NCBI GenBank assembly: GCA_002898255.1
Contig: BEIE01000002.1
Location: 496,001 to 560,000, forward strand
Source of the DNA: a bacterium HR28
GTDB taxonomy: Bacteria > Chloroflexota > Chloroflexia > Thermomicrobiales > Thermomicrobiaceae
Reading direction: 5' to 3'
Length of the DNA stretch: 64,000 bases
The position numbers and the translations under genes are program-made. Below the pieces are notes generated by a model, which did not search any database, had not been told where the DNA came from, and was given only the letters and a program-made list of their open reading frames with translations. Below are positions 4,651 to 44,754 of the stretch, in pieces; within the stretch, counting starts at the first letter, position 1, and every line of letters begins with the position of its first letter.

Positions 4651-5421
4651 ATGGAGCGGATACTCCGCGAAGTACAAGATGGTGTGCTGTTGATCCGGCT
4701 GAACCGGCCGGACAAGCTCAACGCGATCGACGAACAGATGCTGCGCGAACTGTGTACAGCCCTGGACGAGGCACGCGTGGATGACGCAGTACGCGTCGTC
4801 GTCCTGACGGGGAACGAGCGAGCGTTTTCAGCCGGTGCGGACATCGATGGATTTGCTCAGGTGACGGTTGAGGAATTGGCAACCAGCCGTTCCGATTTAC
4901 CGCTGTGGGACACGATCCGGCGCTTTCCGAAGCCATTGATCGCAGCCGTTTCCGGCTATGTCTTCGGCGGTGGGCTTGAGTTGACGTTGGCCTGCGATCT
5001 TGTCGTTGCATCGCAGACTGCGCGCTTTGCCGCACCAGAGATTCGCATCGGTCTCATTCCAGGAGCGGGCGGAACACAGCTCCTCGCACGGCGCTTCGGG
5101 AAGTACCGGGCGATGGAGCTCGTCCTGACGGGTCGGGAGTTTTCAGCCGATGAGGCCGAACGTTGGGGACTAGTCAATCTGGTTACGGCTCCCGAAGAGT
5201 ACTTGACGCGTGCGCTCGAGCTGGCACGGCAGATCGCACAGCATTCGCCAGCAGCGGTGCGAGCTGCCAAGGCTGCAATTGTGCAGGGGCTTGAGATGCC
5301 GCTCGACCCTGCGCTCCGCTTCGAACGGGAGCTGTTCCTGCGCGTCTTCACCACACCGGAAGCACAAGAGGCGATCCGCAGTTTCCTGGAGCGGCGACGC
5401 GCTAAGCAACAGGGTGGCTGA
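4651..5421 (+). CDS. Enoyl-CoA hydratase (crotonase family)
   Basis: The product (256 aa) should hydrate trans-2-enoyl-CoA in beta-oxidation. Both catalytic glutamates are present: in GYVFGGGLELTLACD and in APEIRIGLIPGAGGTQ; the oxyanion-hole AFSAGAD is near residue 65. It follows the dehydrogenase by 27 bp in the same operon and supplies the hydratase activity that the fused crotonase domain of that protein seems to have lost. I prefer the ATG at 4651 (GGGAGA at 4639-4644, 6-nt spacing) over the ATG at 4627, whose only purine run is too close. Confidence 0.93.
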   Translation: MERILREVQDGVLLIRLNRPDKLNAIDEQMLRELCTALDEARVDDAVRVVVLTGNERAFSAGADIDGFAQVTVEELATSRSDLPLWDTIRRFPKPLIAAVSGYVFGGGLELTLACDLVVASQTARFAAPEIRIGLIPGAGGTQLLARRFGKYRAMELVLTGREFSADEAERWGLVNLVTAPEEYLTRALELARQIAQHSPAAVRAAKAAIVQGLEMPLDPALRFERELFLRVFTTPEAQEAIRSFLERRRAKQQGG

Positions 5422-5442
5422 GAACATCTCTCTGTGAGCACG

Positions 5443-5505
5443 GGAGAGACGGCCTGGCACCAATGTCGGGCCGTCTCTCCATCCCAGGCGAACATCTCTT
5501 CGCCT
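5443..5505. terminator. Tandem hairpins between convergent genes
   Basis: A perfect 12-bp stem (5443-5454 with 5469-5480, 14-nt loop) lies just after the hydratase stop, followed by a 7-bp stem with a 6-nt loop (5486-5492 with 5499-5505). There is no U-tract, which is common for hairpins between convergent genes in this window. The position suggests termination of the fatty-acid operon and possibly also of the deacetylase gene on the other strand. Confidence 0.6.
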
Positions 5506-5549
5506 AGGCCCCCTGCTTTCAGCTAGAGGACCACAAGCGGTGGCACCGC

Positions 5550-6905
5550 TCAGAACCGCTCGACATACCAGGCGAAGCGGTCGAGCGAGATCGTGCCGCC
5601 GATCTCGATGCGCGGCTCGGCCCAGCGCTTTTCACGCGTCCAATGAGTGCCGCCCCAGGCGGCCATGGCCCCGAAGTACCCAGTTGTGCTGACGATTGCG
5701 ACGACACGACCATTCCATTCGCCCCCAGGATAGGCGAAGAACAACACCGGTCCGCCGAGCCACTCTTCGAGTTTCTGGCGGCTGGTGACGGCCTCCCAAT
5801 GGATCTCTCCGTCGCTAAGGCGAGTCATCATGCGATGCGTCATGGAGTGGGAACCGATTTCGTGTCCCATGGATCGCAACTCTCGGAGCTCCGCTGGGCC
5901 TAGTGCACTACGGCCTGGGACGACAAAGAACGTCGCGGTCATATTGCGCGCCGCAAGTGCCCGTGCGGCGGCCATCTGACTTCGTGGTCCATCATCAAAG
6001 GTGATCACCACGGCCCGTTCGGGCAACGGGCCATCGGCCAGCAGCGCTTCGTAGGCCTGCTCCAGTGACACCGTCACATAGCCATTGGTGAGGAGCCAAT
6101 CAAGCTGCTGTTCGAGCCGCCACAGTGGAATGCGGTAGCGACCAGCTGGTTCACCGATATCGTGATACATCAGGACAGGTAACCGGAACGCACGGGGAAA
6201 AAGTGCGGGGTCATAGTCTGGCACATCCGGCTGACGGGCCACTGGGGAGGTATCGACGCCATCGCGAGTGGCGAGCGCAGCCCCGAGCCGGCCGAGCTGC
6301 ACCTCCCAGAGCGTGCCGAGTGCTTCAGGATGCCATTCGAAGCGCGCCCGCTCGAAGTACTGCACGGTGTAGGTTTGGCCGGTCTCCGGATCGGTCTCGC
6401 TAAACTCCTCAGAGATTGGATACCCGAAGACGGTGAGTGCACCGTTACGGAGCCAGTAGCGGAGGAAACCGTAGGCGAGCGTGTGGCCGGTCTCAGGGAA
6501 ATACCGGCGAAGCGGGGTGTCCGGCGGTGGAGGATCGAGCACGAGTGGCGCAAAGGCGGGTTCACTGCGTTCGGCAGAGAGGAGTGCACCAACGCGGGTG
6601 AGCTGCACAGGGCAATCTGTGAGGCCAGCGCATGTGAGGGGCGCTTCCATGCGCGCTCGCTCGAAGTACTGGACGAGCATCCCCTCGCGCTCGTGCACCT
6701 CGCTGATCGGATAGCCAAAGATGCGCAGTCCACCGTGGCCACGCCAGAAGGAAAGGAACGGTTCGGCGAGGTGGTGACCGGTCGCCGGAAAATAGACGAT
6801 CGATGGGCCGCTGCTGGCCCAAGCAGGCTGCGCGATCGGGACCGTACCGAGAACAGCAAAAGCCAACGCGAGCAGGAGACTAAGTCGCCCCATCCCCTTC
6901 CTCAC
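5550..6905 (-). CDS. Exported polysaccharide deacetylase with two FGYP modules
   Basis: The product (451 aa) has a signal peptide (hydrophobic run ending in QPAWA) and two copies of an extracytoplasmic module at roughly residues 35-115 and 130-215, each with a ...TGH...F..YW...FGYPISE...VQYFERAR pattern. A NodB-type carbohydrate esterase domain fills the C-terminal half: motif 1 VITFDDGP, motif 2 HSMTH and motif 3 FFAYPGGEW. It should deacetylate cell-wall or surface glycans outside the membrane. The start is GTG at 6905 or ATG at 6893; the first gives a more basic signal peptide. Related modules occur in four other genes of this window. Confidence 0.85.
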   Translation of the reverse strand: MRKGMGRLSLLLALAFAVLGTVPIAQPAWASSGPSIVYFPATGHHLAEPFLSFWRGHGGLRIFGYPISEVHEREGMLVQYFERARMEAPLTCAGLTDCPVQLTRVGALLSAERSEPAFAPLVLDPPPPDTPLRRYFPETGHTLAYGFLRYWLRNGALTVFGYPISEEFSETDPETGQTYTVQYFERARFEWHPEALGTLWEVQLGRLGAALATRDGVDTSPVARQPDVPDYDPALFPRAFRLPVLMYHDIGEPAGRYRIPLWRLEQQLDWLLTNGYVTVSLEQAYEALLADGPLPERAVVITFDDGPRSQMAAARALAARNMTATFFVVPGRSALGPAELRELRSMGHEIGSHSMTHRMMTRLSDGEIHWEAVTSRQKLEEWLGGPVLFFAYPGGEWNGRVVAIVSTTGYFGAMAAWGGTHWTREKRWAEPRIEIGGTISLDRFAWYVERF

Positions 6906-7528
6906 CCCTTCCCATCAGTTCGGATAGGCCGCACGAAGGCCCCACCATGAAGATGAACGAACAGCTTGGTCAACCGTTACAGGATTGTCATAGCACGGAC
7001 TACCAAACGGTCACTCCTCCGTGCAGCGTACGCACTGGTTGGTGCGCGCGCTTGCCAGAGCCAAATGGGGGCACGACCGTCTTGGTGGGGGGAGAGGAGT
7101 GCGATCGCTGGAGGTGGACAGGTACTTTCTTGGACACTGAGGTTGTGCCAACTCAACGATGAAATGAAGTACAACGGACGGCAAGCACACGGAATATCCA
7201 CGCCTTTCTCCTCCGTGAGGAGCAGCATTTCTACTCCCCACCGCGGAGATGGGTAACGAACCGAGTACAGGCACAACGCAGTATGTTCTGGCAGCGTCAC
7301 GACTCGCGCTCGCTGTCCCTCTTGGCACGTTTCTGTGGGGGAGATGAGAATCTCTCGTCACGGGCAGTTCCCATTCCGTTTGGGGCGATGGGAACTGCGA
7401 GACATCGTCGGGAGAACGCTGCCAGTAAGCAGCGACGCAGTGCGGTGCAGTCGCGGACAGGAGAAAGGAACTGATCGGGAACGCGCGGTAGGTTGTTCGG
7501 CCGATCGGGATTGATCGAGGGCCTTTTC
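6906..7528. other. 623-bp intergenic region
   Basis: This gap lies between the end of the Cmr operon and the start of the deacetylase, both on the minus strand. It should hold the operon's terminator and the deacetylase promoter, but I could not fix either with confidence. No repeat array, tRNA or plausible gene is seen. Confidence 0.5.
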
Positions 7529-37569: not shown

Positions 37570-38358
37570 TCAGTTCGCAAAGTGGTGCCCGTCGCCAGAT
37601 ACGGCCCCAACAGCTTCCCGGGTCGGTAGTTCGAGATCAGCGCGGATATTGTTCTCGAAGTATTCGACGTGTCGCCGCATCGCCTCGCGGGCTGCGAGTG
37701 GATCGCCGGCGGCGATTGCCGTGTAGATGTCCTCGTGCCCGCGGAGTGAGCGAGTGAGCCGCTCCGGTGTTCGGGTGGTCATAAGCCAGCCGCTGAAGAG
37801 GACATCGCTGAGCGGCCGACGTGCTTCGCGGAGCAGGCGGTTCCCTGCTGCCTCCATGATCACCTCATGGAAGGTCACATCGAGGCTGACATAGGTCGCG
37901 GCGTCGGCATCGGCGACTGCGGCACGCATGCGTCCGAGGAGATCGTTGAGCCGAGCCAGGTGTTCCGGTGTGCGGCGTACCGCCGCGAGTTCGGCCGCGG
38001 CAAGCTCGAGAATCTTCCGGAGCTCCAAAATCTCCTCCAGCCAGCTTGGATCGCGGTTGGAGCGCAGCCGCTCGAACAGCACCATCGGATCGAGATGGTT
38101 CCACTGTTCGGCCGGTTGGACCCACATGCCGCTTCCGTGCCGGACAGCGACCAGCCCCTTCTCAACCAAGATGCGGATTGCTTCGCGGATCACGATGCGA
38201 CTCACACCGAACTGACGGGCAAGTTCCGGCTCGGAGGGGAGTGCGGTACCGGGTGGGATGGCACCGCTGACGATTTGCTTGAGGAGTTCCTCGACGACGC
38301 GCTGGTGGAGTCGCTCGTGGGTGATTGGCTTACCGGTCACTCGTGTTGCTCTCATCAT
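37570..38358 (-). CDS. GntR/FadR-family transcriptional regulator (FCD domain)
   Basis: The product (262 aa) has an N-terminal GntR winged helix (IPPGTALPSEPELARQFGVS and IREAIRILVEKGLV) and a C-terminal all-helical FCD domain, with likely metal ligands in SLDVTFHEVIMEAAGN and, later, RGHEDIYTAIAAGD and MRRHVEY. This subfamily binds organic acids. The first of two ATGs (38358) follows GGAGAG. The gene stands alone; no obvious target operon is adjacent, so the effector is unknown. Confidence 0.9.
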   Translation of the reverse strand: MMRATRVTGKPITHERLHQRVVEELLKQIVSGAIPPGTALPSEPELARQFGVSRIVIREAIRILVEKGLVAVRHGSGMWVQPAEQWNHLDPMVLFERLRSNRDPSWLEEILELRKILELAAAELAAVRRTPEHLARLNDLLGRMRAAVADADAATYVSLDVTFHEVIMEAAGNRLLREARRPLSDVLFSGWLMTTRTPERLTRSLRGHEDIYTAIAAGDPLAAREAMRRHVEYFENNIRADLELPTREAVGAVSGDGHHFAN

Positions 38359-39095
38359 GGTGTTCTCTCCTAACCTCCGTGTTCGACGAGACCATCGTTT
38401 CGTTCCTAAAGTGTACAGCTCACGACGTGACGAGTGCGCTAGCGCGTTTCGCCACTGCGAACAGTTTGCCAATATCGTGCTGTGCATGATGCCGGGAAAC
38501 TCCTGATCGGTGCAGTGCAGCGTGACGATCTGGCCTGACTATGTTGCGGGGATGTGACTCTGGACAGTAAAGGGCGCTTCGGATCTCCTAGAATGCCTTC
38601 GGGAACAGGCGTACCGCTGTATAGCAGTGTCTTCGTCTTTCTGTGGTTGCTGGACGCAGTCGGCGGCGCGGGATGCCGACCGGATGGCTCGTTAGTCTCA
38701 TCCCACACGTTCTCTCCAGGAAGGTACCTTTCAGCTGTTCCCGTAGGGGGAAGAGCGGTGCACGATGCCTTGCAGGGCATGGTTTGGCTTCTGCTGGGCT
38801 TGCTGGAGAGGCATGGAGGCTGCCGTGCCAAGGCAGACGTGCTGCACCGTTTCCCAGGGAGATACCATCCTTACCTTTCTCTGTGGAGACAGCCGCAATC
38901 GGCACGGGAAGCGCCTGCCCGTGTGGGCAAGGAAGGACTTGGGTCGAGAGATGGGAGGTGAAAGGCCCTGACGTGCTGCGAGGTGCGTGGAGTGGGTCCT
39001 GCAAGGGGTCGACGACAGTTCGGATCCGCCACTGACGTGGACGCCCTTTGTCTCCGGGTTGGATATACTCGTGCCAGGACACTCCGGGGGAAGGG
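38359..39095. other. 737-bp intergenic region upstream of alr
   Basis: No gene could be supported. There are a few short hairpins but no recognised riboswitch or T-box sequence. A -10-like TATACT lies at 39064-39069, about 30 bp before the alr start, without a good -35 partner. Confidence 0.4.
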
Positions 39096-40358
39096 ATGGG
39101 GACGACACACGACCCCAGCTCTGGGGTTTCGTGCCATTGCGCGACCAGCTGGGATATTCGCCTCCACGCCGCGCAGGCTGCGCTCCATGCTGTCATCGAC
39201 CTCGACCAGCTTACGACCAACGCTCGTGCGCTCCTGCGGGCGCTTCCGCCTGATGCGGAACTCCTTGCTGTTCTCAAGGCGAATGCCTACGGTCATGGAC
39301 TCGTCCCCGTGGCGCAGGCGGCGCTGGCGGGTGGTGCGCGCTGGCTCGGCGTTGCCCGCATCGAGGAAGGACTCATCCTCCGCCGCGCCGGCATCACGGC
39401 ACCGATTGTCGTCCTCGGCCCACCAAACCACGCGCGTCTCCGCGAGGCGCTCGCTGCCGATATCGCTCTCGCCGTCGGCTCGGCTGCTGATGTGGCTGCG
39501 GTACGAGCTGCCGCGGCACAGCTAAATCGGCGGGCCCGGCTTCACCTCGAGGTTGATACCGGCATGCACCGCTTTGGGTGCGAGCCGCAGGAAGCCATTG
39601 CACTTGCTCGTGCTATTACCTCGGACCCGTTCCTCGAGCTCGAGGCTGTCTATACCCACTTCGCCACCGCCGATGCACCGGATTGTCGCACGCTCCATCT
39701 CCAGCAGACACGCTTCCGTGCAGTCCGCGAGCGACTGCGTGACGAAGGACTTCACCCACCGGTCGTTCACCAGGCGAATAGCGCTGCGGCACTTCGCGGC
39801 GCGATCGGCGATCCCGATCTTCCCGGCCGGCGCGTTGTCCGCGCTGGTATCGCCTACTACGGCCTCCCGCCGGCGCCGGGACTCGCCTTGCCAGCCGGTA
39901 TCCGCCCGGCGCTGGAGCTCCGCGCTCGACTGGCGCGCTGCTTCACCGTTGCGCCTGGCGAGGGGATCTCTTACGGTCACACCTTCATCGCTGACCGCCC
40001 GTTCCGCTGTGGGCTTGTCCCGATCGGCTACGCTGATGGGCTCCCGCGCGCACTCTCCAACCGCGGTTGGTTTGCCGTGAGTGGCATTCCGTGCCGTATC
40101 CTTGGGCGTGTCTGCATGGACCAGACGATCATTTCCCTGGAGGAGCTCCCTGCGGCAAAGCCCGGCGACCCGGTCGTTATCCTCGGTCGTGGGGATGACG
40201 GCGCGATGACTGCGTGGGACGCGGCGGAACTTAGTGGCACAATCGCCTACGAGATCCTCACCAGCCTGGCTGCGCGTATCCCACGCCTCTACCAGCGTGG
40301 TGGCCAGATTGTTGCTCTCGCTGATGTCTCCGGACTCGCCTGGCATCCCGACGCGTAG
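39096..40358 (+). CDS. alr: Alanine racemase
   Basis: The product (420 aa) is a fold-III PLP enzyme producing D-alanine for peptidoglycan. The PLP lysine is in AVLKANAYGHG (near residue 68), the domain start is VIDLDQL, and the second active-site region has ISYGHTF, VPIGYADG and RVCMDQ. Its C-terminal beta-domain is complete. About 30 residues precede the normal start of the family; the ATG at 39096 follows a GGGGGAAGGG run. A start a few codons later is possible. Confidence 0.92.
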   Translation: MGTTHDPSSGVSCHCATSWDIRLHAAQAALHAVIDLDQLTTNARALLRALPPDAELLAVLKANAYGHGLVPVAQAALAGGARWLGVARIEEGLILRRAGITAPIVVLGPPNHARLREALAADIALAVGSAADVAAVRAAAAQLNRRARLHLEVDTGMHRFGCEPQEAIALARAITSDPFLELEAVYTHFATADAPDCRTLHLQQTRFRAVRERLRDEGLHPPVVHQANSAAALRGAIGDPDLPGRRVVRAGIAYYGLPPAPGLALPAGIRPALELRARLARCFTVAPGEGISYGHTFIADRPFRCGLVPIGYADGLPRALSNRGWFAVSGIPCRILGRVCMDQTIISLEELPAAKPGDPVVILGRGDDGAMTAWDAAELSGTIAYEILTSLAARIPRLYQRGGQIVALADVSGLAWHPDA

Positions 40359-40451: not shown

Positions 40452-42749
40452 ATGTCCGATCGACCAATTCGCATTCTCGTCGTTGACGACCACGCGCTCT
40501 TCCGACAAGGTCTGCGTCAGCTCCTGGCGACGACCGACGATCTTCTTGTCGTCGGTGAGGCGGGCTCGGGTAGCGAGGCCGTGGAGCTTGTCACCCGACT
40601 TGCACCGGATGTTGTGCTCATGGACATCGCGATGCCGGATCTCGATGGCATCGCCACGACCGAAATCCTGCGCCAGCGTTACCCGGGGATCCGCATTGTG
40701 ATGCTTACCATGTATGACGCTGCAACGCATGGAGCGGCAGCGCGCGCTGCTGGTGCTAGTGCCTATGTGGTCAAGAGTAGCCGTCCCGAGGAACTGTTCC
40801 AAGCTATCCGGGCTGCCGCGAACGGTGCCAGTCCTCCGCCAAACGGAAATCCGCATCTGCGTCCGACCGTAAGTAGGAAGCCCTCTGACGACGACCGGCT
40901 CGCACACCTGGAACGTCGGTTGCGCTGGCTCGAGTCGCAACTGGCCGAACTCGCTGCGCGTCAGGCTGCGACCCCACCAGCGGAGCCGAATGGAGCAGCT
41001 CGAGCTGCTCGAAGTGTTCCGGCCGCACCAGTCACAGAAGAGGCGCCGCCTGTTCCTCCGCCCCCACCACCCCCCACATCCGCTTTTCCTGTTGCGGCTC
41101 CAGTCGGAGGAGTCCGTCCGACGAGGATTCCACGCTCCACTCCAGCTCCTGCACCCATGCGACGGCGCCTGCTGATCTTCGGTGCAGGGACACTAGCAGC
41201 TCAGGCGGTGGCGTTGGTCGCACTTCTTGCACCGTTGTCTCTCCCTCTTCCCACAACCTGGGTCGCAATGAGTAGTGGACTCGCAGCCAGCGTTCTTCTC
41301 CTTACGCTGGCAGCAACTGAGCGCGAACGACCAGGTCTTGCCCATCTCGTCTTACTGCTTATGCTGGCGAGTGCTGTTTCCTGGAGCATCCTCACGACCT
41401 GGCAGGCGAACGTCTTCCTCCGCACCACCGCCTTTGCTGGCCTCGTCCTCCTCGGAATATCGGCCCTTGGGTTGTCCTGGTGGCGAGGCTACCTCCTCGC
41501 CGCTGGGCTCGCTCTCGCCATGGTCGCTCTGACACCGTTCCTGTTGAAGATGCTTCCGGCCTACCTGATGCTTCCCTGGATCACTGGATCGGTTGGGATC
41601 GCAACGGTGCTTGCCTGGGTGCGGCTGCGCACCCGCGATGTCCCGGTCGCTTGGGAGTGGCTGCCGCTTGCCCCGCTGTTCGCCGGACTTCCCTTGCTCC
41701 TAGGCTGGGCGGAGCGTGCGCACAGTATGGAAACAGCGCTGCTTGCCGTACCTTGGCTGGTGCTTGTCCCGCTCCTCTGGCAAGCAACTCGTGCCGGCCG
41801 CCGATCCGTGACTGTCGTCCTGCTCGTTGCCGTCGGACTTCTCCTCGGCACCGGGGGCTGGCTCCTGCGTAGCGCAGCCCCCGCAACGCAAGCGGCCGCG
41901 CTCACGGTCGTCGCGGGTAGCCTCGCGCTCCTGGCGCTCCTGCTGTGGCAGGCGGCGCAGCAAGAGCCGCTTGTCCCCGCACCCTGGGAGACAACAGCAG
42001 GCCTGGCCGCGCTCAGTCTGGCTATCGGTGCAGCTCGCCATCCGGAGCCAGTCGTCGCACCGGTTGCCTGGTGCGCGCTTGCCGTGCTTATGGCTGTCTC
42101 AGAGCGGCGGCGGATGTTCCGACAGTGGGCGGCTTTCGCGCTCTTCCTCGCTGGAGGTCTCGCAGCGCTCTCGGTTGTTCTCCGTTCAGACGACACGACG
42201 CGGGTTGCCTCGGTGCTCGTGGCTGTTGCGCTCACGACGGCGAGCGCTCCCTTTGTGGTGATGAGACCACGGCTCCAACTCGCTTGGCTTGCTGCCGGCG
42301 CACTCATGCTCGGCCTCGCTGCGGCTCAGCAATTCGAAGGAGTGGGCGAGATCGCTGCACTGAGCGTACTCGCCCTTGCCGCGCTTCTGCTTGCTCGCTT
42401 TTCCCCAATGGTGGCGAGTTGGAGCTGGCTTCCGGCCGCGGGGCTCGGCGCCGCTGCCCTCCTGGCGGCACTCACCGGTCCACTCTCGCCAGCCCGTCTC
42501 GGGCTTTCGCTCCAGCCAGCGGTTCCTGCGACAAGCGAGCCGGTCGTTGCGGCGACCATCCTCGTTGCGGCAGCACTCGCTGCTGGCCGCGTGCTCGGCC
42601 GGCGCTGGCGCTGGGCTGCGATTGCTACCGCTTTACTTGTCGTCGCCTATGCCCTCCCAGCGGTGCTTCCGGATGCTGCGCTTGTTGTGAGTTGGCTTGC
42701 ACTCGCCGTTGCGCTTGCTCATGCGCTCGGTGGTAGTCCGTGGCGGTGA
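40452..42749 (+). CDS. Response-regulator receiver domain fused to a polytopic membrane domain
   Basis: The product (765 aa) begins with a canonical receiver domain (1-125): acidic pair D12/D13, phosphoacceptor D58 in LMDIAMPD, T86 and K108. A short coiled coil (about 148-172) and a Pro-rich linker (190-236) follow, then about 500 residues of hydrophobic helices, probably 15 or more spans, resembling DUF2339-type membrane proteins. No HTH output domain is present. A phosphorylation-controlled membrane protein is a rare architecture. The fusion is within one continuous frame with no sign of a frameshift. It lies 94 bp after alr, so may be co-transcribed. Output function unknown. Confidence 0.82.
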   Translation: MSDRPIRILVVDDHALFRQGLRQLLATTDDLLVVGEAGSGSEAVELVTRLAPDVVLMDIAMPDLDGIATTEILRQRYPGIRIVMLTMYDAATHGAAARAAGASAYVVKSSRPEELFQAIRAAANGASPPPNGNPHLRPTVSRKPSDDDRLAHLERRLRWLESQLAELAARQAATPPAEPNGAARAARSVPAAPVTEEAPPVPPPPPPPTSAFPVAAPVGGVRPTRIPRSTPAPAPMRRRLLIFGAGTLAAQAVALVALLAPLSLPLPTTWVAMSSGLAASVLLLTLAATERERPGLAHLVLLLMLASAVSWSILTTWQANVFLRTTAFAGLVLLGISALGLSWWRGYLLAAGLALAMVALTPFLLKMLPAYLMLPWITGSVGIATVLAWVRLRTRDVPVAWEWLPLAPLFAGLPLLLGWAERAHSMETALLAVPWLVLVPLLWQATRAGRRSVTVVLLVAVGLLLGTGGWLLRSAAPATQAAALTVVAGSLALLALLLWQAAQQEPLVPAPWETTAGLAALSLAIGAARHPEPVVAPVAWCALAVLMAVSERRRMFRQWAAFALFLAGGLAALSVVLRSDDTTRVASVLVAVALTTASAPFVVMRPRLQLAWLAAGALMLGLAAAQQFEGVGEIAALSVLALAALLLARFSPMVASWSWLPAAGLGAAALLAALTGPLSPARLGLSLQPAVPATSEPVVAATILVAAALAAGRVLGRRWRWAAIATALLVVAYALPAVLPDAALVVSWLALAVALAHALGGSPWR

Positions 42750-42910: not shown

Positions 42911-43954
42911 CTAGAGCGCGAAGCCGGTAGGGAAGGGGTCATCATCCCGCAGGATGAGTGTGGCGATCCCCATGCAGTACGACATGGTGCTGATCTCGCT
43001 GTGGATTGCATCCCCTTCGCGGCGCAGCGGGCGCGCTATGAAGCGGAGGCCGACGGGGCTTTCGTGGTAGTAACTCGCACCGAGCGGGAGACGGTTGCTG
43101 GCGACGAGCGCCGCGACGCGGGCTGCGGTGCCGGTGCCAGACGGAGTGCGACCCATGGTACGCGGTGCGTAGAAGTTGGCGACGCGTGCGCCAGCCGGTT
43201 GCCTGCTTGATCCGGATGGGAGTGGCGAGCCGTTGGCATCGAGTTCCTGGACGAGGGTGACAAGATCGACAGGGCGACCGGAGGTGACACCGGGGACATC
43301 GGCGCGAAGCTGAGCACGAGCTGCCTGCCACAGGAGGGTGCCAACCTCAAGTACGCGCTCGCGCGCACTCGGTGGGAGTTCGGGGCCTAACTCGAGACCG
43401 AGCGCAGTAGCGTCGACAAAGGCGTAGAGGAGCCCACCCCAGGCAAGCGTGACGGGAACAGGGCCGAGTTCGTGTGTTTCCAGCACGGCGTCACCAAGGG
43501 CATAGGAGGGGCCACTGGCCATGGTAGCGGCGACGACGCGCCCCTGCCGAAGACTAATGCGCACCGGGACGGTGCCGAGCACGGTGTCGAGCAAGAGCTC
43601 CTGCTCGCCGTCTTCGACCGTACGCGGTACTAAGCCGCTCTCGACGAGAGCGATAGCGACGCTGAAGGTGGAGTCACCGCAGGCATCGAAGTAGCCATCG
43701 GGATGGACGAAGATGACGCCGGCATGGCTGGTGGGATGTTCCGGCTCGGTGAGGAAGGCTCCGAGAAGATTGCGATGCCCGCGAGGTTCTCGGCAAATGA
43801 GCGCACGCAGATGGTCGTAGCGGGCGGAGAGGTCGTTTTGCTTCTCGCGCATGGTGCGACCGCGAAGTGGTGGACATCCGGCGACAACGATGCGGGTGGC
43901 CTGGCCATGATGGTAATCCCAGACATGGAGCACGTGGCGTGCATTGCCGAACAT
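42911..43954 (-). CDS. Proline racemase/hydroxyproline epimerase-like protein with altered active site
   Basis: The product (347 aa) has the proline racemase two-lobed fold. The first catalytic motif, normally MCGHGT, is here ACGDST (C92 kept, His lost). The second, normally SPCGTG, is here TPSGTG (S272 in place of Cys). Characterised trans-3-hydroxy-L-proline dehydratases have a Thr at the second place, so a Cys/Ser pair is not a standard racemase. It may be a dehydratase-like or otherwise diverged enzyme. GGGGGAG precedes the ATG at 43954. No proline-catabolic genes are adjacent. Confidence 0.8.
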   Translation of the reverse strand: MFGNARHVLHVWDYHHGQATRIVVAGCPPLRGRTMREKQNDLSARYDHLRALICREPRGHRNLLGAFLTEPEHPTSHAGVIFVHPDGYFDACGDSTFSVAIALVESGLVPRTVEDGEQELLLDTVLGTVPVRISLRQGRVVAATMASGPSYALGDAVLETHELGPVPVTLAWGGLLYAFVDATALGLELGPELPPSARERVLEVGTLLWQAARAQLRADVPGVTSGRPVDLVTLVQELDANGSPLPSGSSRQPAGARVANFYAPRTMGRTPSGTGTAARVAALVASNRLPLGASYYHESPVGLRFIARPLRREGDAIHSEISTMSYCMGIATLILRDDDPFPTGFAL

Positions 43955-44754
43955 GGTGGGTCTCCCCCTTCCCACGTGGATGACCGGCGCGTCTCCCACG
44001 ACGTCCCGCGGTCGCAGCGCTTCCCCGTTGCTGCGAGAGGCGATTGTGGCTGAGCTCCACCGACCGGTTGCGGCGATGCGCCGTGGACTTGTGGCTTTTC
44101 GCGTGCCCTCTCGGGCACTGCGACAAGAGTTCGTGAAGGAGTGCGTTCGGTTTGGTGTTGTCGCGTGCCAGAGAGCAGAGCACGGCCCCACCCATGATAC
44201 GACGGGGGAGCGTCTCAGGAGGCAGCAGGGAGACCGAGTAGGAGCGCAATGAATCGCGCCCGCTCGTTGGTCGGCCGTGAGATGATCGATCGCACTCACC
44301 TGAGCACTTCGCGATCTCAGGCACGGACGAGGCGGATGTGGCCGCTAGGCGCTGGATTGCACGCGTCTGGTTCACGCGAAAGCAGCGCTGCAGGGGATCA
44401 CTGCTGCAGAACAAGACAAGCGGTGATACTGCTCGTGTCGCGGGTGAATGTAGCAGAACGGATAGAGCAAGAAGCGCGCTTGGCGTCACACCGCTGATGC
44501 TGGGGCTGCTCGACCTGGTAAGGGGTGGGCGGGAACACGGCACCTTGTTGGTCCCGTTGGCGAAACGTGTTTTCGCTGGCTCAGCGCTCGGTGGGGACAG
44601 AGCAGATCGGTAGCCTCGATGACTGCGGAAGTGGTGCTGGTATGCTGCCTGCGTCGGATGTCTGCCGAGAGGTGCGGGCACCGAACTCGAAGAGGCACTG
44701 AATGAGAGACACCGGCTGCAGAGTGGTGATAGGAGAGCGTGAGAGGGTAAAGCG
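43955..44754. other. 800-bp intergenic region
   Basis: No gene or RNA was recognised. Open frames on both strands are poor. A 6-bp hairpin with a 4-nt loop (GTGCCC/GGGCAC) occurs near 44101-44116. The region separates divergent genes. Confidence 0.4.

What the first reader, a model, noticed from the sequence alone, without database searches (positions are those of the whole stretch)
40452..42749. Response-regulator receiver domain fused to a large polytopic membrane domain
All receiver-domain residues are present (D12/D13, D58, T86, K108), joined by a coiled coil and Pro-rich linker to about 500 residues of membrane helices with no DNA-binding output. Receivers controlling a many-spanning membrane protein are rare, and the output domain resembles DUF2339 only in general character. 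This could be a phosphorylation-gated transporter, channel or polymer-export component.
Basis: partly seen in the sequence, partly recalled or inferred. Interest (0 to 1): 0.7.

Follow-up and report, generated by a model that had tools for sequence, protein, structure and literature searches.

The report
Phosphorylation switch fused to membrane-protection protein
Heat-loving bacteria of the Thermomicrobium group carry one gene that joins a two-component phosphorylation switch to a many-helix membrane protein of the DUF2339/Arc3A family, so a family known elsewhere for protecting cells against membrane-cutting toxins is here probably controlled directly by a signalling kinase, without going through gene expression.

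Summary
The fusion is real. The 765-aa ORF at 40452-42749 has an intact NarL-type receiver (D12/D13, D58, T86, Y105, K108), a coiled coil, a Pro-rich linker and about 17-21 membrane helices. No DNA-binding domain is found. It is not a sequencing merge: nine intact copies occur in three genera of one family, including T. roseum, where it is annotated as a transcription factor.

The membrane part is a diverged, C-terminally shortened DUF2339 (Arc3A) domain. Sister-genus fusions pass Pfam's DUF2339 cut-off. Profile comparisons link the window protein to DUF2339 directly (93%) and through those sisters (99.5%), against at most 1.7% for controls. Coiled coil plus Pro-rich linker is the ordinary DUF2339 front end; only the receiver is new. 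No other DUF2339 protein examined carries one. The tree fits one fusion event.

The receiver derives from a NarL-type regulator that still sits beside its kinase. The kinase-docking helix is kept, the output face is remodelled.

Best reading: a kinase-controlled Arc3A-like membrane protein acting on membrane-lipid damage. Arc3A protects P. aeruginosa against phospholipase toxins by an unknown mechanism. T. roseum membranes are diol-based, so the substrate probably differs. Phosphotransfer, partner kinase and activity are untested. Transporter, channel or polymer export has no support.

The parts
40452..42749 (+). whole fusion gene, receiver + DUF2339-like membrane domain, 765 aa
   Evidence: single open frame; nine intact orthologues aligned
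40452..40826 (+). NarL-type receiver (REC) domain, residues 1-125
   Evidence: PF00072 E 4.2e-28; best PDB match NarL 1a04, E 2e-23
40623..40625 (+). codon of the phospho-acceptor D58
   Evidence: invariant in all nine fusion copies, as are D12, D13, T86, Y105, K108
40887..40970 (+). coiled-coil helix, residues 146-173
   Evidence: the only region of the single-sequence model with block mean pLDDT above 70; equivalent coiled coil precedes most REC-less DUF2339 domains
40971..41159 (+). Pro-rich linker, residues 174-236
   Evidence: sequence; fastest evolving part, dN/dS about 0.45-0.62 in close pairs
41160..42746 (+). diverged DUF2339/Arc3A-type polytopic membrane domain, residues 237-765, N-terminus in
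   Evidence: profile comparison with DUF2339 92.9%, E 3.7e-7, and 99.5% with the sister-genus fusions that hit PF10101; K+R 24 inside vs 9 outside in the N-in model
42420..42728 (+). best conserved C-terminal membrane unit, residues 657-759 (GPLSPxRLGLxLxP...EP...GR..G...Y.LP...P.A.V.SW)
   Evidence: densest run of invariant membrane-domain columns; dN/dS 0.13-0.17
39048..40358 (+). alanine racemase (alr), 93 bases upstream on the same strand
   Evidence: PF01168/PF00842 and TIGR00492; adjacent to the fusion in Thermomicrobium, T. roseum and G009, 2-5 kb away in G008/G016
37570..38487 (-). GntR/FCD (FadR-like) regulator, conserved neighbour
   Evidence: PF00392 + PF07729; within about 4 kb of the fusion in every copy with flanks examined
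42911..44299 (-). proline-racemase-family protein, conserved neighbour in Thermomicrobium and G009
   Evidence: PF05544; synteny

Best explanation
The protein is an Arc3A-type (DUF2339) membrane protein whose activity is set directly by a two-component kinase. A NarL-type receiver was joined once, in an ancestor of the Thermomicrobium / G008-type / G009-type genera, to the cytosolic coiled coil and Pro-rich front end of a DUF2339 protein. Shown here: the fusion, its conservation and selection, the homology of the membrane domain to DUF2339, the origin of the receiver from the neighbour-kinase NarL regulator, and the retained kinase-docking helix with a remodelled output face. Inferred: a HisKA_3 kinase, most likely the one paired with the parental regulator (G000 C1:1014035), phosphorylates D58; the alpha4-beta5-alpha5 face then changes its contact with, or the dimer state of, the coiled coil, and this switches or localises the membrane domain. 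Inferred from Pseudomonas Arc3A: the membrane domain limits build-up of damaged (lyso-type) polar lipids, here possibly diol-based ones. Fusion would replace transcriptional control of Arc3A (Gac/Rsm in Pseudomonas) by fast post-translational control.
For: Receiver intact and all catalytic residues invariant. Fusion in nine intact copies. Sister-genus copies match PF10101 at 65 bits against a cut-off of 33.6; hhalign A3-A5 100%, E 2e-59; A2-A3 99.5%, E 3e-22; A2-A5 92.9%, E 4e-7; reversed, block-shuffled and 29 natural polytopic controls score at most 1.7%. Fusion membrane domains lie on one side of a 100/100 branch. Receiver groups with the parental NarL regulators. Within genus g3 alpha1 is 95% identical to the parental regulator, while alpha4/beta5/alpha5 are 69/67/56%; in Thermomicrobium 70% against 34/25/57%. 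The parental regulator sits beside a related kinase in every fusion-bearing genome checked. Family function: Arc3A protects against Tle3, TseL and Tle1 lipases and prevents lysophospholipid accumulation (PMC8926400, PMC12663445).
Against: No kinase is encoded next to the fusion, and no phosphotransfer is shown. The Thermomicrobium domain is too diverged for PF10101 to detect and all nine fusions lack the C-terminal DUF2339 module found in Chloroflexota relatives, so function may have shifted. T. roseum membranes are long-chain 1,2-diols and lack the usual glycerolipids (PMC2615216), so the Arc3A phenotype cannot carry over literally. The neighbours alr and FadR/GntR do not point to lipids. The copy in G005 is broken, so the gene can be lost or is misread there.
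Confidence: 0.45

Rival explanations
1. Membrane-tethered phosphate sink or competitor. The membrane domain only anchors the receiver, which draws phosphoryl groups from, or dimerises with, the parental kinase-regulator pair and so tunes that DNA-binding regulator.
For: The receiver is a close relative of the parental regulator, with near-identical alpha1 in genus g3; no dedicated kinase is adjacent.
Against: A pure anchor would not need about 20 helices under purifying selection (dN/dS 0.21-0.37, C-terminal unit 0.13-0.17) with invariant polar residues and prolines, nor an output face that diverges systematically from the parent.
Confidence: 0.2
2. The receiver is a scaffold or dimerisation module that is no longer phosphorylated in use; the DUF2339 domain works constitutively.
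For: Single-sequence data cannot show phosphorylation; no cognate kinase is adjacent.
Against: Six catalytic or switch residues are invariant in nine copies down to 32% overall identity; dN/dS of REC is 0.05-0.07 in distant pairs.
Confidence: 0.15
3. Phosphorylation-gated transporter, channel or polymer-export component.
For: About 17-21 membrane helices and an N-in topology.
Against: Homology is to DUF2339/Arc3A, for which no transport activity is described in the two papers read; no transporter, channel or polysaccharide-export family matches; no export genes among the conserved neighbours.
Confidence: 0.12
4. Artefact: two genes merged by a sequencing or assembly error near 41150.
For: One relative, G005, has frameshifts in this gene.
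Against: Nine independent intact copies, including a closed T. roseum megaplasmid.
Confidence: 0.01

Closest known systems
Arc3A / DUF2339 (PF10101) membrane proteins, e.g. PA5114 of Pseudomonas aeruginosa
   Same: coiled coil, Pro-rich linker and a very large number of membrane helices; homologous membrane domain by profile comparison
   Different: N-terminal receiver in place of a zinc ribbon, TM helix or signal anchor; C-terminal module missing; no Arc3B (PF13163) hit in the family (the negative is weak); host membrane chemistry differs
NarL/FixJ response regulators
   Same: receiver domain, catalytic residues, relation to HisKA_3-partnered regulators of the same genome
   Different: LuxR-type GerE DNA-binding domain absent; output is a membrane domain; alpha4-beta5-alpha5 face remodelled
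WP_012642735.1 of Thermomicrobium roseum (TRD_RS13820), 'response regulator transcription factor'
   Same: orthologue, same architecture and same place after alr
   Different: about 51% identical to the window protein; its annotation as a transcription factor is not supported, since no DNA-binding domain is found

Membership tests
DUF2339 / Arc3A | PF10101 match over the curated cut-off | tested here: not met
   Window and other Thermomicrobium copies have no match. Fusion orthologues of genus g3 do match, 65 bits against 33.6, so the family is diverged at this end, not unrelated.
DUF2339 / Arc3A | homology of the membrane domain by profile comparison | tested here: met
   92.9% direct, 99.5% through sister fusions, 100% for sister fusions to DUF2339; controls at most 1.7%
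DUF2339 / Arc3A | coiled coil and Pro-rich linker before a very large number of TM helices | tested here: met
DUF2339 / Arc3A | C-terminal DUF2339 module (Pfam positions about 405-659) | tested here: not met
   absent in all nine fusions by a motif made for the Chloroflexota type; Pfam matches end at position about 405. The motif does not recognise Pseudomonadota members, so it defines only the local type.
DUF2339 / Arc3A | protection against phospholipase toxins, no lysophospholipid accumulation | not testable with these tools
   needs complementation and lipidomics
DUF2339 / Arc3A | Arc3B (PF13163) partner gene | tested here: inconclusive
   no hit in 21 genomes, but no control genome rang either; Arc3A exists without Arc3B in other phyla
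NarL/FixJ response regulator | receiver with catalytic Asp/Thr/Lys | tested here: met
NarL/FixJ response regulator | GerE (LuxR-type) HTH output | tested here: not met
   no HTH match in any fusion copy; present in the paralogue L002

The most novel reading that the evidence does not exclude
A two-component receiver was fused once to an Arc3A-type protein, giving direct kinase control of a membrane-damage defence or lipid-homeostasis machine, re-tuned to the diol-based membranes of Thermomicrobium. It would be a response regulator whose output is a large polytopic membrane domain that acts on the membrane itself.
Probability: 0.3. Interest if true: 0.75.

Novelty: new variant of a known kind. 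Interest (0 to 1): 0.55.

Why it matters
DUF2339/Arc3A is widespread and its mechanism is unknown. A natural version with a built-in phosphorylation switch gives a handle: D58A and D58E forms offer off/on states to purify, reconstitute and compare. It would also be a response regulator that acts in the membrane, not on DNA, and it lies in a lineage whose best-studied member has diol membranes, which tests whether Arc3A proteins really handle lysophospholipids or damaged amphiphiles in general. It also flags that RefSeq calls such proteins transcription factors.

Tried and rejected
The single genome-contig scan with the full alignment returned receiver-only relatives, because the conserved patches used as patterns were in the receiver. 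Sequence search of the PDB with the membrane profiles gave nothing. Merge by sequencing error: rejected (nine intact copies). An orphan DegS-like kinase at G000 C1:293341 was looked at as a partner; it has no adjacent regulator, and nothing ties it to the fusion. The alpha1 helix does not single out one partner kinase, since another NarL regulator of the genome (L003) matches it about as well. In the receiver tree an ANTAR protein joins the Thermomicrobium fusions, flagged by the tool as a long-branch artefact. Searches for papers on membrane-bound response regulators by that phrase found none, and two surveys of response-regulator outputs are not held, so rarity in the literature is not established.

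Full report
Observation. The frame 40452-42749 (+) encodes 765 residues. Residues 8-120 are a Response_reg domain, E 4.2e-28, and nothing else passes a Pfam cut-off. The nearest solved receiver is NarL (1a04, E 2e-23). D12, D13, D58, T86, Y105 and K108 are invariant in nine copies. A helix at 146-173 is followed by a Pro-rich stretch and then a polytopic domain. Hydropathy finds 17 segments in this copy and 14-18 in the others, with more basic residues inside (24 against 9) if the receiver is cytosolic. The low-confidence single-sequence model (mean pLDDT 49) shows a receiver-like order of strands and helices and about 21 helices after residue 235.

Not an artefact. The fusion occurs intact in Thermomicrobium genomes G000, G001, G002 and G003, in T. 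roseum NC_011961 (WP_012642735.1, 770 aa), and in two further genera of the family (G008, G013, G016; G009). G018 has the membrane part at a contig end, so its receiver cannot be seen. In G005 the gene is broken by several frameshifts although alr, GntR and the proline racemase beside it are intact; this is either a pseudogene or a local read error. Between G000 and the others dN/dS is 0.05-0.29 for the receiver, 0.21-0.37 for the membrane part and 0.13-0.17 for its last 116 residues, while the linker is far looser.

What the membrane part is. PF10101 (DUF2339) does not see the window protein, but it matches the fusion proteins of genus g3 at up to 65 bits against a cut-off of 33.6. Profile comparisons give 100% (E 2e-59) for g3/G009 fusions against REC-less DUF2339 proteins of the same order, 99.5% (E 3e-22) for Thermomicrobium fusions against g3/G009 fusions, and 92.9% (E 4e-7) for Thermomicrobium fusions directly against DUF2339. 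Reversed and block-shuffled profiles score at most 1.7%, and 29 unrelated polytopic proteins at most 1.0% (one of these, L243, is itself a far Pseudomonadota DUF2339 protein that scored 0.4%, so the comparison does not reach all of the family). The match stops at about Pfam position 405: all nine fusions lack the C-terminal module of the local DUF2339 type.

Where the parts come from. REC-less DUF2339 proteins of Chloroflexota already have coiled coil and Pro-rich linker, some preceded by a zinc ribbon or a TM helix. Among the DUF2339 proteins of the class and phylum samples and 30 of Pseudomonadota, none outside this family has a receiver; G014, of the same family, has a REC-less one. In a tree of membrane domains all fusions lie on one side of a 100/100 branch, which fits a single fusion. 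The receiver groups with NarL-type regulators of the order (95/94) that carry a GerE domain and sit beside a related kinase in all fusion-bearing genomes examined. Between fusion and parental regulator in genus g3, alpha1 is 95% identical while alpha4, beta5 and alpha5 are 69, 67 and 56%; in Thermomicrobium the figures are 70 against 34, 25 and 57. Kinase docking is kept and the output face has changed, as expected when a DNA-binding output is exchanged for another one. These comparisons were chosen after the fact and are supportive, not proof.

Surroundings. alr lies 93 bases upstream on the same strand without a terminator-like site between. It is adjacent in all Thermomicrobium copies and in G009 (there downstream), 2-5 kb away in G008 and G016, and not found near the G013 copy. 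A GntR/FCD regulator lies within about 4 kb in every copy examined. A proline-racemase-family gene is conserved in Thermomicrobium and G009. None of these tells what the membrane domain does.

Mechanism. DUF2339 proteins include Arc3A of P. aeruginosa, the factor most critical for survival of the phospholipase toxin Tle3. Its loss lets lysophosphatidylethanolamine and monolysocardiolipin accumulate, and distant homologues complement; how it works is unknown (PMC8926400). A second study confirms protection against TseL and Tle1 (PMC12663445). There Arc3A is under transcriptional control by GacS/GacA. The most likely reading here is that control has been moved onto the protein: a HisKA_3 kinase, probably that of the parental regulator, phosphorylates D58, and the altered output face acts through the coiled coil on the membrane domain. 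The phosphorylation step, the partner and the activity are inference. T. roseum has long-chain 1,2-diol lipids in place of glycerolipids (PMC2615216), so the substrate cannot simply be the one known from Pseudomonas; this may explain the divergence of the Thermomicrobium domain, but that is speculation.

Verdict. Observation confirmed, interpretation partly supported. The finding is a new domain architecture made of two known families: a new variant of a known kind, not a new kind of system. Whether receiver + DUF2339 occurs in other phyla was sampled, not exhausted.

Noticed in passing
L019 6001-8313 (T. roseum NC_011961.1, 143988-146300): The orthologue WP_012642735.1 is annotated 'response regulator transcription factor' although it has no DNA-binding domain; automatic naming follows the receiver alone.
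   Followed up: yes
L049 about 4687-6981, minus strand (G005 C94): Fusion copy with at least three frameshifts, while neighbouring alr, GntR and proline-racemase genes are intact: pseudogene or local sequencing error.
   Followed up: partly
L064 / L072 (G025 C132): A 1579-aa REC-less DUF2339 protein built of several tandem copies of a repeated multi-helix unit, a possible clue to how the family grows and shrinks in helix number.
   Followed up: no
L058, L155, L195: DUF2339 proteins whose N-terminus is a zinc ribbon (CxxC...CxxC) in place of a TM helix: the DUF2339 front end is a slot for exchangeable cytosolic modules.
   Followed up: partly
L220 745-2052 (G000 C1:293341): Orphan DegS-like (PF05384) kinase-like protein without an adjacent response regulator.
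   Followed up: partly
window 42911-44299 and 39048-40358: Two racemase-family genes (proline racemase, alanine racemase) flank the fusion; in G008 and G013 a further enzyme that looks like the enolase superfamily (read by eye) lies next to it.
   Followed up: no
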